From: an uncultured Archangium sp.
GTDB lineage: Bacteria > Myxococcota > Myxococcia > Myxococcales > Myxococcaceae
Length of the DNA: 16,455 bases
Assembly (NCBI GenBank): GCA_946479335.1
Contig: CAMLFP010000084.1
Span: 1-16,455 of the forward strand
Direction: 5' to 3'
Positions 7,739-16,434 of this stretch are shown here, in pieces. Position 1 is the first letter of the stretch. Every line of letters starts with the position of its first letter. Under the pieces are notes generated by a model that worked only from the letters and a program-made list of their open reading frames with translations, was not told the origin of the DNA and did no database searches. Position numbers and translations under genes: made by a program.

Positions 7739-8995
7739 ATGGCTGCCTCGCAAGCGCACACGCCCGACGAGTTCCGCATGAGCTTGATGGAGCACCTCAC
7801 GGAGCTCCGCTCGCGGCTGCTGCGCGTCACCGTCGCCGTGCTGGGGCTGGGCGCGTTCTCGCTCCTCTTCGCGCGCGAGCTGTACGGGCTGCTGATGCGC
7901 CCGGTGTTGCTCTCGCTCCCGCCCGAGGCGAGCTCGCTCGTCTACACCTCGGCCATCGAAGAGATAAACGTGCTGATGAAGATCGGCCTCTACGCCGGCA
8001 TCTTCCTCGCGACGCCGGTGCTGCTCTGGCAGGTCTGGGGCTTCGTCGCGCCGGGCCTCTACGAGAACGAGCGCAAGCTGGCCGGGCCCTTCATCGTCTT
8101 CGGCACGCTGGCCTTCATCGTCGGCGCGCTGTTCTGCTACTTCGTGCTGCTGCCGCAGATGTTCACCTTCCTCCTGCAGAAGGAGGACACCGCCGCCGCC
8201 AACCATCGCCTCGCCGTCGCGCGGCTGCATGAAGACGACGCGGTGCGCGCGCTGCGGCTGGCCGACTTCGAGAAGGCCTCCGCGTGGGCCAACCTCGCGC
8301 TGGGTGAATTGAAGGCGCCGGGCGTAGGGCAGACCTCCGAGGGGCTGTTCGGCCTGCAGCTCACGCTGGTGCCCAAGCGCGACGTCGACCTCCGCGCGCG
8401 CCTCGAGGGCCTGGGCCGCCTCATCGACGCGCTCCACGCCGCGCAGGGCCCGGAGCTCAACGCGCAGCTGCGCCCCGTCAGCGAGGCCCGCGCCCGCGCG
8501 GTGCAAGCCTGGGGAGAGAAGGACTGGGACCGGGTCTCCGACCTCCTCGACGAGGCCGCGAAGCAGCTGGCGGCGACGGTGCCGTCGCGGAGCGCCGAGC
8601 TCACCGGGCTGTGGGAGCTGGAGCGCCTGCTGGGCAGCGCGCACGCGCAGGCCGAGTCGCTCAACTGGACGCGCCCGATGCTCACCATGAACGAGCAGCT
8701 GACGCTGGTGCTGGTGCTGGAGCTCGCCTTCGGCGTCATCTTCGAGCTCCCGCTGGTGATGGCGGTGCTGGGCCTGGTGGGGCTCGTCTCGTCGAGCTTC
8801 CTCTTCAAGTACCAGCGCCACGCCTTCGTGGTGTGCCTCATCGTCGCCGCGGTCATCACGCCCACCGGCGACGCGGTGAACCTGGCGCTGATGGCCGGCC
8901 CCATGCTGCTTTGTTACGAGTTGGGCGTGGTGCTGGTGTGGCTCGTCGAGAAGCGCCGCGCGCGCGCCGCCGCGCAAACGCCGCCCGCGCCATGA
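7739..8995 (+). CDS. tatC: Sec-independent protein translocase TatC with large insertion in periplasmic loop 2
   Basis: A 418-residue TatC; the family is usually about 240-270. Family landmarks are intact: MEHLTELRSRLL (17-28, Glu22), FVAPGLYENER (102-112, Glu111) and FGVIFELP in TM4 (331-338, Glu336). These match E. coli Glu15, Glu103 and Glu170, the first two of which lie in the signal-peptide binding site. TM1-TM3 (to about 147) and TM4-TM6 (from about 317) look normal. Between them, residues about 148-311 replace a loop of about 18 residues with a soluble, Ala/Leu/Glu-rich, probably all-helical domain (for example ADFEKASAWANLALGELK, with TPR-like character). By topology this domain faces the periplasm. 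The reading frame is continuous and codon use is uniform, so it is not an assembly error. The downstream RCK gene overlaps the last 4 bases. Confidence 0.95.
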   Translation: MAASQAHTPDEFRMSLMEHLTELRSRLLRVTVAVLGLGAFSLLFARELYGLLMRPVLLSLPPEASSLVYTSAIEEINVLMKIGLYAGIFLATPVLLWQVWGFVAPGLYENERKLAGPFIVFGTLAFIVGALFCYFVLLPQMFTFLLQKEDTAAANHRLAVARLHEDDAVRALRLADFEKASAWANLALGELKAPGVGQTSEGLFGLQLTLVPKRDVDLRARLEGLGRLIDALHAAQGPELNAQLRPVSEARARAVQAWGEKDWDRVSDLLDEAAKQLAATVPSRSAELTGLWELERLLGSAHAQAESLNWTRPMLTMNEQLTLVLVLELAFGVIFELPLVMAVLGLVGLVSSSFLFKYQRHAFVVCLIVAAVITPTGDAVNLALMAGPMLLCYELGVVLVWLVEKRRARAAAQTPPAP

Positions 8996-11215: not shown

Positions 11216-11887
11216 TCACGGAGCCGGGGTTTGTGGCCCCAGCCCGGCCTTCTTGCGCGCCTCGAGCAGCTTCGCGACGTCGCCCGGCGGCAGCGGCTGC
11301 ACGGCGCCCAGAGAGCGGCTCGCCAGCAGGATTTTCGCGTAGTGCTCGACCAGCTCCATGCGCAGCAGCGCGAGGTTCAAGTCGGGCCCCAGCGTCAGCG
11401 CGCCGTTGCCGGCCAGCAGCATGGCGTCGACCTTCTTCGCGGCGGCCTCGACGCCTTTGACGGCCTCCGGCGTCTTCGGCATCGCGCGCGGCACCGTGGG
11501 GATGGAGTCGCCCAGCGACACCACGATTTCCGGCATGGCGATGGGCGCGAGCTCCTGGCCGGTGAGGCCGAAGGCGGTGGCGGTGGGCGGGTGCGCGTGC
11601 AGCACCACGTCGACCTCCGGGCGCGCGCGGTAGGCCGCGAGGTGCAGCTCCAGCTCTGAGAACGGCTTCCTGCGGCCCTCCAGCACCTTGCCGTGGAGGT
11701 CGGTGATGATCAGCGACGCGTCGTCGACGTCGGCCTTGGAGAAGGCGGTGGGCGTCATCAACAGCCGGTCGCCGCGCAGGCGCACCGAGATGTTGCCGTC
11801 GTGGTTGGCGACCCAGCCGTTGGCGTGCAGGCGCCGTGACAGCGCGACCAGCTCTGCGCGGAGCTTTGGCAGGGGCGCGAAGGGCAT
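11216..11887 (-). CDS. Class II aldolase (fuculose-phosphate-aldolase-like), microcompartment-linked
   Basis: A 223-residue class II aldolase/adducin-domain protein. It aligns by eye with E. coli FucA: GNISVR (31-36), SELELHLAAY with catalytic-type Glu78, and VVLHAHP with zinc ligands His97 and His99. The third zinc histidine, normally in a [N/H]-H-G motif, is replaced: the sequence is LLAGNGALTLG with Asn161 before Gly162. The family cleaves sugar-phosphate substrates to dihydroxyacetone phosphate plus an aldehyde, or acts as an epimerase or dehydratase. The C-terminus (PLPPGDVAKLLEARKKAGL) is a Pro linker plus amphipathic helix. It could be an encapsulation peptide, but the FucA C-terminus is similar. 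The start ATG at 11887 lies 2 bp after the upstream pentamer gene. Aldolases of this class occur in Planctomycete fucose/rhamnose microcompartments. Confidence 0.85.
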   Translation of the reverse strand: MPFAPLPKLRAELVALSRRLHANGWVANHDGNISVRLRGDRLLMTPTAFSKADVDDASLIITDLHGKVLEGRRKPFSELELHLAAYRARPEVDVVLHAHPPTATAFGLTGQELAPIAMPEIVVSLGDSIPTVPRAMPKTPEAVKGVEAAAKKVDAMLLAGNGALTLGPDLNLALLRMELVEHYAKILLASRSLGAVQPLPPGDVAKLLEARKKAGLGPQTPAP

Positions 11888-11889
11888 CT

Positions 11890-12162
11890 TCAGGCGACGT
11901 CGACCTGGTCGACGACTCCGACGATGAGCGCGCGGATGGGCGCGTTCGGGTCTTTGAGCGTCATGCGCACGCCGCCGCCCTCGTTCATCACCAGCACCAC
12001 GTCGCCCTTGCCGGCCGAGGAGGTGTGGTCGATGGCCAGGTACGACTTGCCCAGCGGCTTCTGCGTCTCGTCGAGCGGCTGCACCACGAGGATCTTCCGG
12101 CCCTCGAAGACCGGCAGCTTCTCGGTGGCGACCACCGTGCCCAGCACGCGGCAGAGGTTCAT
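11890..12162 (-). CDS. EutN/CcmL-family microcompartment vertex (pentamer) protein, copy 2
   Basis: A 90-residue protein beginning MNLCRVLGTVVATEK, then GRKILVVQPLD, AIDHTSSAGKGDVVLV and, near the end, APIRALIVGVVDQVD. This is the full EutN/CcmL (Pfam EutN_CcmL) pattern at the usual length of about 85-100. These proteins form pentamers that cap the vertices of polyhedral bacterial microcompartments. The start overlaps the preceding pentamer gene's stop (ATGA at 12162-12159), and the aldolase starts 2 bp after its stop, so all three are translationally coupled. It differs clearly from copy 1 (EGGGVRMTL versus EGSREAALA after the core), so the two are diverged paralogues that may make distinct or mixed pentamers. 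Confidence 0.92.
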   Translation of the reverse strand: MNLCRVLGTVVATEKLPVFEGRKILVVQPLDETQKPLGKSYLAIDHTSSAGKGDVVLVMNEGGGVRMTLKDPNAPIRALIVGVVDQVDVA

Positions 12163-12422
12163 GCGTCGACCTCATCGACGAGGCCCACGATGGCGGAGTC
12201 GACCGGCACGAAGGTCGGGTCGCACGCCAGCGCCGCTTCGCGGGACCCTTCGAGCATCACCAGCGAGCCCGGAGACGCCGACGCGCGGTCGACCGCCACC
12301 TCGACGGGGCCGGTCGGCTGGTTCGCGTGGTCGACCGGCTGCACCAGCAGGAAGCGCGCGCCCTCGAGCCCGGGGACGCGGTTGGTGGCGACGACGGTTC
12401 CGAGGACTTTGCCCAGGTACAT
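12159..12422 (-). CDS. EutN/CcmL-family microcompartment vertex (pentamer) protein, copy 1
   Basis: An 87-residue protein: MYLGKVLGTVVATNRVPGLE, then FLLVQPVD, VAVDRASASPGSLVMLEGS and the family's closing pattern VDSAIVGLVDEVD. ATG at 12422 was chosen because family members typically start M-x-L-G-x-V. A GTG at 12434 would add MPRA and lies 4 bp after the upstream stop. The expected role is closing the vertices of a protein shell around an aldehyde-producing pathway. It is the first of two adjacent pentamer genes. No hexameric BMC-H or trimeric BMC-T shell gene is in the window, so shell facets, if any, must be encoded elsewhere. Confidence 0.92.
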   Translation of the reverse strand: MYLGKVLGTVVATNRVPGLEGARFLLVQPVDHANQPTGPVEVAVDRASASPGSLVMLEGSREAALACDPTFVPVDSAIVGLVDEVDA

Positions 12423-12438: not shown

Positions 12439-13737
12439 TTACGGCGCGACGGCGACGCCCACCTTGAACGGCAGCTCCAGCTGCGTCTCGGCGTCGGAGC
12501 CGGGGAAGACGATGCGCTTGCCGGCCGACATCATGCACTGGCCCCAGTCGCTGATTTCGTGCTTCTTGGGGTCGATGCCCGCGGCCTTCACCGCGCCCGA
12601 GGGGCCCACGGTCAGCACCACCGTCACGTTGCCCACCGCGAGGTTCGGGTTGCGGCGGAGCGCGTTGTCGATGCACGTCTGGAAGGCCTTCTGCTTGTCG
12701 GCCACCACCTTCGAGACGGCCTCCTGCGAGAGGCCCGCGCTGTTGACCTGGGTGCCGGAGCCGGTGTCTTCGCCGGTCTTCCGCACCTTGGGGCCGGTGG
12801 TCTTGAGGCCGGTATCTCCGTAGAAGGCGGCGAGGTTGGGGTCTTGCTTCTTCGGCACCACCACCTCGGGCTCGGCGGCCTTCCGGGCGAGGAGGGCCTT
12901 CTTCTTCGCGGCCTCCTCGGCGGCGCGGCGCTCGGCCTCGGCCTTCTTCTTCGCGCCGTCGCCGGTCAGCAGGTCCTTGAGGCCCTCGGCGCCGCCCGCG
13001 GAGAAGAAGCTCTCCTGCACCTCTTCGCCCTGCTCGTTGGTGCGCGTCACCGTCGGCAGCTTCACGATTTCGAACGTGTTGAGGATGTAGACGAGCAGCA
13101 ACGGCCCGCCGACGAAGGCCACCGCGAAGAGGGCGATCTTCCACGGCGGGTTGCGCTTGTCGGCGCCCGACGCGATGAGGAACGAGCGCGTGGTCTCGCC
13201 CATCGGCGCGTCACCGTCGGTGGCGCCGAGCGCCGCGAAGGGGTCGAAGGCGGGCTCCTGGGTGGAGGCGGAGGCGGGGGCCGGCGCGGCGTCGTCACCG
13301 AACAGCCCGTCGAGCGGGCGCTCGGGCGGGGCGGGCTTCGCAGGCGCGGGCGGCGGCGGCTCCATCACCGCCGACACGGTGGGCACCAGCGGCGCCAGCT
13401 CGGGCACGTCCTGCACGCGGCTCCACGACGCCATGCCGGCGCGCCACACGTGCGTGCGCGGCGTGATTTCTCGCGCGCTCGCCCGCTGGAAGAGCTGCTC
13501 GAAGTCGAAGGGGCCCTGCTGCTGACCGGCGACCATCGCGAACCACTGCGGCTCGTCGGTGGGCGCGGCGACGGCGGCGGGTGGGGCCTGCGGCGCGGGC
13601 GTCGGCGACGACACGTGCAGGTTCACCGAGATGAGGTGCTGGCACTGCTTGCACCGCACCTTGAACACGGTCTTCCCTCCGAGCTTTTCGTCGGAGATGA
13701 CGTACTTCTTGCCGCACTGGTCGCAGGTGACGTTCAC
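12439..13737 (-). CDS. AgmX/GltJ-like membrane protein: zinc ribbon, GYF domain, TM, AgmX/PglI C-terminal domain
   Basis: A 432-residue protein. An MJ0042-type zinc ribbon at the N-terminus has C5-x2-C8 and C29-x2-C32. After a Pro/Ala linker comes a GYF_2-like domain (about 64-117: QWFAMVAGQQQGPFDFEQL, then WRAGMASW). A long Pro/Ala/Asp linker leads to one TM helix (about 199-221), a charged coiled segment (about 262-288) and a C-terminal domain (about 335-428) with Cys355 and Cys401, matching the AgmX/PglI C-terminal type and resembling TonB C-termini. This order matches M. xanthus GltJ/AgmX, whose cytoplasmic zinc ribbon and GYF domain bind motility regulators, but this protein is shorter. 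By topology the N-terminus is cytoplasmic and the C-terminus periplasmic. It probably heads the operon with the pentamer and aldolase genes, 4-16 bp away. Confidence 0.85.
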   Translation of the reverse strand: MNVTCDQCGKKYVISDEKLGGKTVFKVRCKQCQHLISVNLHVSSPTPAPQAPPAAVAAPTDEPQWFAMVAGQQQGPFDFEQLFQRASAREITPRTHVWRAGMASWSRVQDVPELAPLVPTVSAVMEPPPPAPAKPAPPERPLDGLFGDDAAPAPASASTQEPAFDPFAALGATDGDAPMGETTRSFLIASGADKRNPPWKIALFAVAFVGGPLLLVYILNTFEIVKLPTVTRTNEQGEEVQESFFSAGGAEGLKDLLTGDGAKKKAEAERRAAEEAAKKKALLARKAAEPEVVVPKKQDPNLAAFYGDTGLKTTGPKVRKTGEDTGSGTQVNSAGLSQEAVSKVVADKQKAFQTCIDNALRRNPNLAVGNVTVVLTVGPSGAVKAAGIDPKKHEISDWGQCMMSAGKRIVFPGSDAETQLELPFKVGVAVAP

Positions 13738-13813: not shown

Positions 13814-14068
13814 ATGGCAGCCAAGGACCTCGGAACCAAGCACGTCTGCTTCAAGTGTGGCGCGAAGTTCTATGACCTGAAGAAGCCGAACGCGGTGTGC
13901 CCGAAGTGCGGCGCTGACCAGAAAGACGCGACCGCCAAGCCTGAGGGGCGCCGCAGCCGCCTGTCGGCCGTGCCGAAGATCGTCGAGCCCGTCGAGCCCG
14001 TTGAGAAAGAGGCGGGCGACGAGATCGAAGAAGTCGAAGAAGAGGAAGCTGAAGAAGAAGAGGCGTGA
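13814..14068 (+). CDS. TIGR02300 / FYDLN-type zinc-ribbon protein with acidic tail
   Basis: An 84-residue protein beginning [24 protein letters not shown]. It has C12-x2-C15 and C29-x2-C32 zinc-ribbon pairs around the FYDL signature (FYDLK here; FYDLN in the family name). The tail from about residue 60 is extremely acidic (residues 65-84 mostly Glu). TIGR02300 'FYDLN acid domain' proteins of proteobacteria have this layout; their function is unknown. The protein is probably cytoplasmic, with the acidic tail perhaps acting as a protein or nucleic-acid mimic contact. It is divergent from the AgmX/GltJ-like gene, and strong hairpins follow its stop codon. Confidence 0.88.
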
Positions 14069-15217: not shown

Positions 15218-15823
15218 ATGGTGACGAAGAGTTCCAAAGCGCTGACGGGGAAGGCGTTGCAGTTGGCGGTGCTGCGCTTCATCGCGCGCGAAGAGCCGCT
15301 CGGCGCGACGTTGTCGGCCTTCCCGCAGCTCGACCGCGTGAAGCTGCAGCGCGCCCTGGAGCGCGCCGCCTCCGCGCTCGAAGGCAACGGCATCGACCTG
15401 GAGCCCGCGGGCCCGGCGTACCTGCGGTTGCGCCTCTATTCAGACGGCGCGGCGCGCGGCAACCCGGGGCTGGCCGGCGCGGGCGCGGTGCTGGTGGAGC
15501 CCTCGGGGCAGGTGGTCGACAAGCTCGGCAAGTTCCTCGGGCGGCAGACCAACAACTACGCCGAGTACATGGGCCTGTTGATGGGCCTCAAGCGCGCGCG
15601 TGAGTTGGGCGTGCGCGAGGTCGAGGTGTTCGCCGACTCCGAGTTGATGATTCGCCAGCTCGGCGGGCGCTACCAGGTGAAGTCGCCGTCGCTGCGGCCG
15701 CTGTACCTCGAGACGTTGCAGGTGCTGAACGACTTCGAGCGCGTGAAGCTGGTGCACGTGCCGCGCGAGATGAACCGCGCCGCCGATGAGATGAGCAACC
15801 GCGCCATCGACGAGCGCATGTGA
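15218..15823 (+). CDS. RNase HI-family ribonuclease with N-terminal extension
   Basis: A 201-residue protein. The RNase H fold occupies about 68-201, with its four acidic catalytic positions: Asp76 in YSDGAARGNPG, Glu116 in NNYAEY, Asp140 in FADSELMI and Asp190 in NRAADEMSN. This is the short RNase HI subtype that cleaves RNA in RNA/DNA hybrids in the cytoplasm. Residues 1-66 form an extra helical region (ALQLAVLRFIAREEP) of unknown use, different from the typical hybrid-binding HBD domain. No C-terminal phosphatase domain is present, unlike the mycobacterial relative. The gene follows the zinc-ribbon gene by 15 bp, and its stop overlaps the next start (GTGA), so it sits in the middle of an operon. 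The symbol is left blank because another rnhA may exist. Confidence 0.92.
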   Translation: MVTKSSKALTGKALQLAVLRFIAREEPLGATLSAFPQLDRVKLQRALERAASALEGNGIDLEPAGPAYLRLRLYSDGAARGNPGLAGAGAVLVEPSGQVVDKLGKFLGRQTNNYAEYMGLLMGLKRARELGVREVEVFADSELMIRQLGGRYQVKSPSLRPLYLETLQVLNDFERVKLVHVPREMNRAADEMSNRAIDERM

Positions 15824-16434
15824 AGCCCACCGCGCCGACGCTGGAGCTTTCGAGCGTGCAGGCGTGGGCCGCGTGGCTCCGTGAGCATCACGCGAGCTCT
15901 GCCGCGGTCTTCCTGCGCATCGAGAAGCAGAACGCCAGCACGCTGACCTACGCGAGCGCGTTGGAGGTGGCGCTCGTCTGGGGGTGGATCGACGGGCAGA
16001 AGGCGGCGCTCGATGACACCGCGTGGCTGCAGCGCTTCTCGCGGAGGACCGCGAAGAGCCCGTGGTCGAAGGTGAACCGCGCGAAGGCCGAGGCACTGAT
16101 GGCGAGCGGCCAGATGCAGCCGGCGGGCCTGGCGGAGGTGCAGCGCGCGAAGGCCGATGGCCGGTGGGAGCGCGCGTACGACGGCGCGAAGACCGCGACC
16201 GTGCCGGATGACCTCGCGGCGGCGCTGGCGAAGAAGCCGCGCGCGCGGGCGTTCTTCGACGCGCTCGACTCGGCGAACCGCTTCGCGATTCTCTACCGGG
16301 TCACCACCGCGAAGCGCGCCGAGACGCGCACCGAGCGCATCGAGAAGTTCGTCGCGATGTGCGCCGCGGGGCAGACGCTGTTCCCGCCGAAGAAGGCGAG
16401 GAAGAAGCCCGCAGTTCGCTCAACAGGGCGGTGA
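15820..16434 (+). CDS. YdeI/OmpD-associated (OmdA) family protein
   Basis: A 204-residue protein with a GTG start overlapping the RNase H stop by 4 bases. The N-terminal part has the YdeI-family pattern: VQAWAAWLREHHASS, then TLTYASALEVALVWGWIDGQ (41-60), followed by RFSRRTAKSPWSKVNRAKAE (72-91). The C-terminal region (about 128-180, PDDLAAALAKKPRARAFFDAL and the R-IEKFV segment) matches the OmdA domain. Members have been linked to bacteriocin or antimicrobial-peptide resistance in enterics, but the biochemical activity is unknown. The Lys/Arg/Pro-rich last 15 residues may be a flexible tail. It is probably co-transcribed with the two upstream genes. Confidence 0.88.
   Translation: MKPTAPTLELSSVQAWAAWLREHHASSAAVFLRIEKQNASTLTYASALEVALVWGWIDGQKAALDDTAWLQRFSRRTAKSPWSKVNRAKAEALMASGQMQPAGLAEVQRAKADGRWERAYDGAKTATVPDDLAAALAKKPRARAFFDALDSANRFAILYRVTTAKRAETRTERIEKFVAMCAAGQTLFPPKKARKKPAVRSTGR

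What the first reader, a model, noticed from the sequence alone, without database searches (positions are those of the whole stretch)
11216..12422. Minimal microcompartment cassette: two vertex-protein genes plus an aldolase, with no shell hexamer in view
Two adjacent, diverged EutN/CcmL genes and a class II aldolase are translationally coupled (ATGA overlap, then a 2-bp gap). Known metabolosome loci carry BMC-H hexamers beside their pentamers and usually an aldehyde dehydrogenase, and none is seen here. It is either a satellite locus of a shell encoded elsewhere, or a use of pentamers without a shell. Planctomycete-type loci pair class II aldolase with pentamers, so a sugar-phosphate (fucose/rhamnose-like) pathway is the first guess.
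Basis: partly seen in the sequence, partly recalled or inferred. Interest (0 to 1): 0.8.

Follow-up and report, generated by a model that had tools for sequence, protein, structure and literature searches.

The report
Satellite genes of a bacterial microcompartment
These three genes look like a detached part of a known kind of bacterial protein-shelled organelle whose other shell proteins lie elsewhere in relatives' genomes; the surprise is that the enzyme among them has asparagine where its family carries a metal-binding histidine, a change shared by a whole branch of relatives.

Summary
In detail: 12159-12422(-) and 11890-12162(-) encode EutN/CcmL pentamers and 11216-11887(-) a class II aldolase, coupled as described. 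It is a satellite of an HO-type (Haliangium ochraceum) microcompartment; [quoted passage not shown] The window's own genome is not held. Of 145 genomes in a relative's order, 41 carry the satellite and all 41 carry PF00936 genes on other contigs; none has the satellite alone. 'Pentamers without a shell' is not supported; a fucose/rhamnose pathway is neither supported nor excluded.

What looks new: the aldolase has Asn161 where class II aldolases carry the third metal-binding His. Of 94 satellite-type aldolases, 49 have Asn and 45 His; the tree needs one change (100/98). Glu78, His97, His99 and Glu120 are the same in 94 of 94; 17 of 17 paralogues read have His. Four Asn-type copies have tails that look like encapsulation peptides. 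I read it as an active cargo enzyme with an altered metal site, untested. A conserved upstream zinc-ribbon/GYF gene is a resident neighbour, not a component.

The parts
12159..12422 (-). BMC-P vertex protein 1 (P0003, 87 aa, EutN/CcmL)
   Evidence: PF03319 E 1.5e-23; PDB sequence matches 4jw0, 4i7a, 5v74
11890..12162 (-). BMC-P vertex protein 2 (P0002, 90 aa, EutN/CcmL)
   Evidence: PF03319 E 1.5e-22; model pLDDT 93.0 matching EutN/CcmL folds
11216..11887 (-). class II aldolase-family protein (P0001, 223 aa), Asn variant, no C-terminal encapsulation-peptide-like tail in this copy
   Evidence: PF00596 E 3.6e-42; model pLDDT 95.8, best fold matches FucA (4c25, 1e4c) and DrdA (6btd)
11405..11407 (-). 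codon AAC for Asn161, at the place of the third metal-binding histidine
   Evidence: aligned with the His of NHG in 6btd and 4c24; AAC in 34 and AAT in 5 of 39 Asn-type copies
12439..13737 (-). co-directional upstream gene (P0004; zinc ribbon, GYF_2, AgmX/PglI-type C-terminal domain); resident neighbour, judged NOT a component
   Evidence: domains; a relative stands next to FYDLN/CdsZ/RNase H genes in 7 of 7 BMC-free genomes read

Best explanation
The three genes are the satellite locus of an HO-type (type I) bacterial microcompartment. The two pentamers would be two of the BMC-P triplet that caps the shell's vertices (shown: family, fold of one of them, co-occurrence; inferred: assembly). The shell hexamers, trimers, third pentamer and an aldehyde dehydrogenase (CoA-acylating by family, inferred) are encoded at a separate main locus (shown in relatives, inferred for the window's own organism). 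The aldolase-family enzyme most likely makes the aldehyde that the dehydrogenase consumes inside the shell (inferred). In this lineage its metal site differs from the family's: two His plus Asn in place of three His, with Glu78, His97, His99 and Glu120 kept. The most likely meaning is an active enzyme with a different metal preference or reaction rather than a dead one (inferred, untested).
For: Families and coupling. [quoted passage not shown] In the order, 41 of 145 genomes hold the satellite and 41 of 41 hold PF00936, on other contigs in each; 39 of 41 include a hexamer-grade match (E below 1e-28), G010 and G147 only trimer-grade ones; 0 satellite-only, 5 PF00936-only, 99 neither (Fisher p 5.9e-31, not corrected for kinship). 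A satellite-type aldolase is in 40 of the 41. Main locus in L064: BMC-T, BMC-H, BMC-P, AldDh, BMC-T; AldDh is nearest to 5jfl; its catalytic Cys is kept in 29 of 29 copies that reach it, from 25 genomes. Presence and absence changed at least twice among 19 loci (CdsZ+RNase H tree). Asn161: 49 Asn, 45 His, one change, 100/98; Glu78, His97, His99, Glu120, Lys51 in 94 of 94. Tails like encapsulation peptides, judged by eye, on Asn-type L100, L192, L195, L196.
Against: The window's own genome is not held, so its main locus was not seen. The window's aldolase has no encapsulation-peptide-like tail, so encapsulation is unproven. G027 has the pentamer pair but no satellite-type aldolase (best hit 39%). 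G039, G042 and G142 have a main locus without a complete satellite; G039's is cut by a contig end. No assay shows activity or metal, and loss of a metal ligand is also what a decaying enzyme would show.
Confidence: 0.9

Rival explanations
1. Pentamers used without a shell: a free-standing two-pentamer plus enzyme assembly.
For: No PF00936 match in the 15 window proteins scanned; the window's genome is not held.
Against: 0 of 145 genomes of the order have the satellite without PF00936; 41 have both. 37 of 37 genomes behind relatives' loci have PF00936, 21 of them being among the 41.
Confidence: 0.03
2. The Asn-type aldolase is a pseudoenzyme kept as a scaffold or regulator of the shell.
For: The third metal-binding His is Asn in 49 of 49 sequences of one clade. 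In human MtnB (APIP), replacing all three His by Ala abolished activity (PMC3532061, passages). No new His, Cys or Asp is among the 8 positions that set 39 Asn-type apart from 25 His-type sequences.
Against: The other two metal His, the base Glu78 and Glu120 are unchanged in 49 of 49, which is unlike drift in a dead site. Asn can ligate metals (recalled, not from a call). Tails like encapsulation peptides persist on four copies (by eye).
Confidence: 0.25
3. Planctomycete-type (PVM) fucose/rhamnose organelle.
For: PVM organelles also have a PF00596 aldolase (Sutter 2021); the fold matches FucA best.
Against: The split pentamer pair with an aldolase is what Sutter 2021 describes for HO. The aldolase scores 97.5 bits against a cut-off of 251 for its best NCBIfam model and 69.9 against 400 for fucA. 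No sugar kinase or isomerase among the 15 window proteins scanned.
Confidence: 0.08
4. The true unit is a four-gene operon in which the zinc-ribbon/GYF protein P0004 anchors or positions the organelle.
For: A relative lies directly upstream on the same strand in many satellite loci: 35 of 53 upstream proteins extracted match a profile built from 13 of them at E 8e-37 or better.
Against: In 7 of 7 BMC-free genomes read (L104-L110) a relative sits at the same FYDLN/CdsZ/RNase H site with no satellite in the 11 kb, and in G156 it lies on another contig than the satellite. Four satellites of another order (L018, L024, L030, L039) lack it.
Confidence: 0.06

Closest known systems
Satellite locus of type I HO BMCs (Sutter et al. 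2021, PMC8217296)
   Same: Two BMC-P genes plus an aldolase, apart from a main locus; HO loci carry an AldDh and a BMC-P triplet and occur in myxobacteria.
   Different: The aldolase carries Asn in place of the third metal His; the passages read do not mention this, and 'zinc' and 'active site' do not occur in the main text (supplements not read).
Class II aldolase family PF00596 (FucA, DrdA, AraD, MtnB, POD)
   Same: Fold (TM 0.84-0.86 to FucA and DrdA), Glu base, first two metal His.
   Different: Third metal His is Asn; no NCBIfam model listed reaches its cut-off (25 of 30 shown).
ACI BMC of Acidobacteria (Sutter 2021)
   Same: PF00596 aldolase with a BMC-P triplet, and an AldDh encoded apart.
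   Different: There the aldolase has a C-terminal encapsulation peptide; the window's copy shows none.

Membership tests
HO type I BMC satellite | two BMC-P genes plus an aldolase, no BMC-H, at the locus | tested here: met
   (15 window proteins scanned)
HO type I BMC satellite | main locus with BMC-H, BMC-T, BMC-P and AldDh elsewhere in the same genome | tested here: inconclusive
   Own genome not held. In relatives: PF00936 in 41 of 41 satellite genomes of the order; layout read in L064.
HO type I BMC satellite | lies apart from the main locus | tested here: met
   For relatives: on different contigs in 41 of 41 satellite genomes of the order, draft assemblies. Not so in all 37 genomes: in G033 and G037 pentamers and PF00936 lie within about 10 kb.
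HO type I BMC satellite | BMC-P triplet per genome | tested here: inconclusive
   Exactly 3 PF03319 matches in 28 of 37 relatives' genomes, 2 to 7 in the rest; window genome not testable
EutN/CcmL (PF03319) | sequence family and pentamer subunit fold | tested here: met
   fold for P0002 only
EutN/CcmL (PF03319) | forms pentamers that cap a shell | not testable with these tools
   needs electron microscopy or a structure
Class II aldolase PF00596 | fold and catalytic Glu | tested here: met
Class II aldolase PF00596 | His triad binding the metal | tested here: not met
   His97 and His99 present, third position is Asn161
PVM (planctomycete) BMC | fucose/rhamnose pathway genes with the shell | tested here: not met
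   none among the 15 window proteins scanned; main-locus flanks of relatives only partly scanned
BMC cargo | encapsulation peptide on the enzyme | tested here: not met
   absent in the window's copy; EP-like tails by eye in Asn-type L100, L192, L195, L196

The most novel reading that the evidence does not exclude
The HO organelle of this lineage runs on a class II aldolase-fold enzyme with a two-His, one-Asn (plus Glu) metal site, a new active-site type in this superfamily that brought a different metal or a different reaction into the compartment and has been fixed since a single change.
Probability: 0.4. Interest if true: 0.62.

Novelty: new variant of a known kind. Interest (0 to 1): 0.4.

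Why it matters
[quoted passage not shown] A clade-wide, fully conserved difference at the metal site of its likely signature enzyme gives a concrete handle: compare the Asn-type and His-type enzymes for metal and substrate. The co-occurrence data also answer the question of shell-less pentamers for this kind of locus in relatives.

Tried and rejected
Shell-less pentamers: rejected on co-occurrence.

P0004 (zinc ribbon/GYF) as a fourth component: first looked strong (35 of 53 upstream proteins extracted matched its profile, 13 of them used to build it; that script seems to have read L004 and L027 in a wrong frame, L004 by comparison, L027 by eye), then rejected because a relative stands at the same site in 7 of 7 BMC-free genomes read, L104-L110.

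PduL as a missing partner: PF06130 is in 17 of 145 genomes, four of them without PF00936 (G112, G127, G132, G138); 14 of the 17 best hits lie in open frames of 596-649 aa; none is within 70 kb of a shell gene listed.

Replacement ligand for the lost His: 8 positions separate Asn-type (39) from His-type (25) satellites, and none is a new His, Cys or Asp; position 70 is a Gln-to-Glu change whose distance to the metal I could not measure.

Promoter and terminator scan: no promoter-like site; 6 terminator-like sites against a shuffle mean of 3.7, sd 1.8; uninformative. Literature searches for EutN, CcmL and Myxococc, fuculose, aldolase and His155, and GltJ, GYF and zinc listed no paper.

Rows dropped before the 49/45 count: L103 (ends at residue 161, where it reads Asn), L030/L145 (same genome, end before residue 161), L033 (weak hit, reads His), L124, L129, L142 and L150 (repeats of L018, L024, L039, L032), and paralogues L112-L123, L146-L149, L204 (all 17 His at 161; L112 reads Leu at 99 in a local alignment). 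Kept although no pentamer gene was found in the 4 kb read: L198, L199, L201 (all His). Kept although moved away from the pentamers: L202, L203 (both Asn).

Full report
What is there. Three genes on the minus strand are packed head to tail: BMC-P (12159-12422), BMC-P (11890-12162) and a class II aldolase-family protein (11216-11887), with a 4-nt ATGA overlap and a 2-bp gap. Pfam places the first two in PF03319 and the third in PF00596, all far above cut-off. AlphaFold models are confident (pLDDT 93.0 for P0002, 95.8 for the aldolase), and Foldseek returns EutN/CcmL/GrpN pentamer subunits and FucA/DrdA aldolases. P0003 was not modelled.

Is there a shell? The window's genome is not held, so I used relatives. 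A profile scan of genome contigs gave 53 loci. I gave the genomes behind 37 of the 53 to a PF00936 search; 37 of 37 have BMC-domain genes. For a less selected sample I asked for the order of G001, a close relative, and 145 genomes were searched. P0002 matches 45 of them and PF00936 matches 46. By my reading of these lists 41 carry the satellite: both pentamers side by side in 40, and in G155 one pentamer plus the aldolase at a contig end. All 41 have PF00936, on other contigs; 39 include a hexamer-grade match (best E below 1e-28), while G010 and G147 show only trimer-grade ones. Five have PF00936 without a complete satellite: G039 (satellite cut by a contig end), G042, G142, and G105 and G107 with one weak hit each. 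G045 has only a marginal P0002 hit (5e-4) and no PF00936. No genome has the satellite alone. A satellite-type aldolase (56% identity or more) is in 40 of the 41, but not in G027, where the best hit is 39%; it has moved away from the pentamers in G016 and G154. Fisher p for satellite against PF00936 is 5.9e-31, but the genomes are related. A tree of CdsZ+RNase H from 19 loci (13 with the satellite, the window counted, and 6 without) needs at least two changes of presence.

The main locus. In L064 (G001) five neighbouring genes read BMC-T, BMC-H, BMC-P, aldehyde dehydrogenase, BMC-T. The dehydrogenase is nearest to 5jfl. Its catalytic Cys is present in 29 of 29 main-locus copies that reach the position, from 25 genomes; L055 is cut short, and L050, a 30% hit in a Chloroflexota locus, is left out. 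Its first 20 or so residues look like an encapsulation peptide, by eye.

Known or not. Sutter et al. 2021 (PMC8217296; passages; [quoted passage not shown] Axen et al. 2014 (PMC4207490; passages) define satellite loci. So the arrangement is known. The guess of a planctomycete-type sugar pathway has no direct support: the aldolase's best NCBIfam score is 97.5 bits against a cut-off of 251.

What looks new. In FucA, MtnB and even the Fe(II) dioxygenase POD the metal is held by three His. The POD paper reports the triad completely conserved in 452 PODs and equivalent to FucA's zinc motif (PMC11841055, passages). The MtnB paper reports loss of activity when the three are changed to Ala (PMC3532061, passages). 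The DrdA paper shows that the metal in this family can differ, with Mn preferred (PMC6079011, passages). In P0001 the third His is Asn161, codon 11405-11407, aligned with the His of NHG in 6btd and 4c24. Among 94 satellite-type aldolases and close relatives, 49 have Asn and 45 His, and the best tree needs one change, support 100/98, in 100% of 200 bootstrap trees; L196 (Asn) and L193 (His) sit on long branches, and one origin is not excluded rather than proved. A smaller set of 53 gave 39 Asn and 14 His, 97/91; its Asn codons are AAC in 34 and AAT in 5. Glu78, His97, His99, Glu120, Asn32, Lys51 and Gly162 are the same in 94 of 94. In another order, that of G018, 22 of 22 genomes have such an aldolase and 21 of 21 readable copies have His; in the order of G032 6 of 16 genomes have one and 6 of 6 have Asn. 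Paralogues away from satellites have His in 17 of 17 read. Papers on this Asn were sought and I saw none in the listings; the library is open-access only.

Reading of the change. Drift in a dead enzyme should also touch the other metal residues, and it does not. Four Asn-type copies (L100, L192, L195, L196) end in short amphipathic tails like encapsulation peptides (judged by eye), so the Asn-type enzyme is probably cargo. The window's copy lacks such a tail, so how it would enter the shell is open. I favour an active enzyme with an altered metal site, at about 0.6 against 0.25 for a pseudoenzyme; no assay bears on it. The reaction is not assigned: aldol cleavage, epimerisation, decarboxylation and dehydration all occur in this fold.

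A corrected lead. The gene P0004 directly upstream (zinc ribbon, GYF_2, AgmX/PglI-type end) has relatives directly upstream of many satellites of the order and looked like a fourth component. But in 7 of 7 BMC-free genomes read (L104-L110) a relative stands beside the same FYDLN, CdsZ and RNase H genes with no satellite. I take it for a resident gene behind which the cassette sits.

Noticed in passing
window 12439-13737 (-) and 13814-14068 (+): A zinc-ribbon/GYF/AgmX-type gene and a divergent FYDLN_acid gene form a block with CdsZ and RNase H that is kept in 7 of 7 BMC-free relatives read.
   Followed up: yes
window 7739-8995 (+): TatC whose Pfam match is split in two stretches in a 418-aa protein, suggesting a long insertion; relatives in nine satellite loci.
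   Followed up: partly
L018, L024, L030, L039, upstream of the satellite: In another order the gene directly upstream of the pentamers encodes a TPR-like lipoprotein instead (judged by eye).
   Followed up: no
G105 and G107: Single weak PF00936 matches in genomes without a P0002 match, perhaps relics of a lost shell.
   Followed up: no
G016 contig C2 and G154 contig C6: The Asn-type aldolase lies about 22 kb and 6 kb from the pentamer pair but is kept, and still has Asn.
   Followed up: partly
G027 contig C83 / L027: Pentamer pair present but no satellite-type aldolase in this draft genome, the one exception among 41.
   Followed up: partly
window 15820-16434 (+): OmdA (YdeI/OmpD-associated) domain protein at the window end, with no relative in the satellite loci compared.
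   Followed up: no
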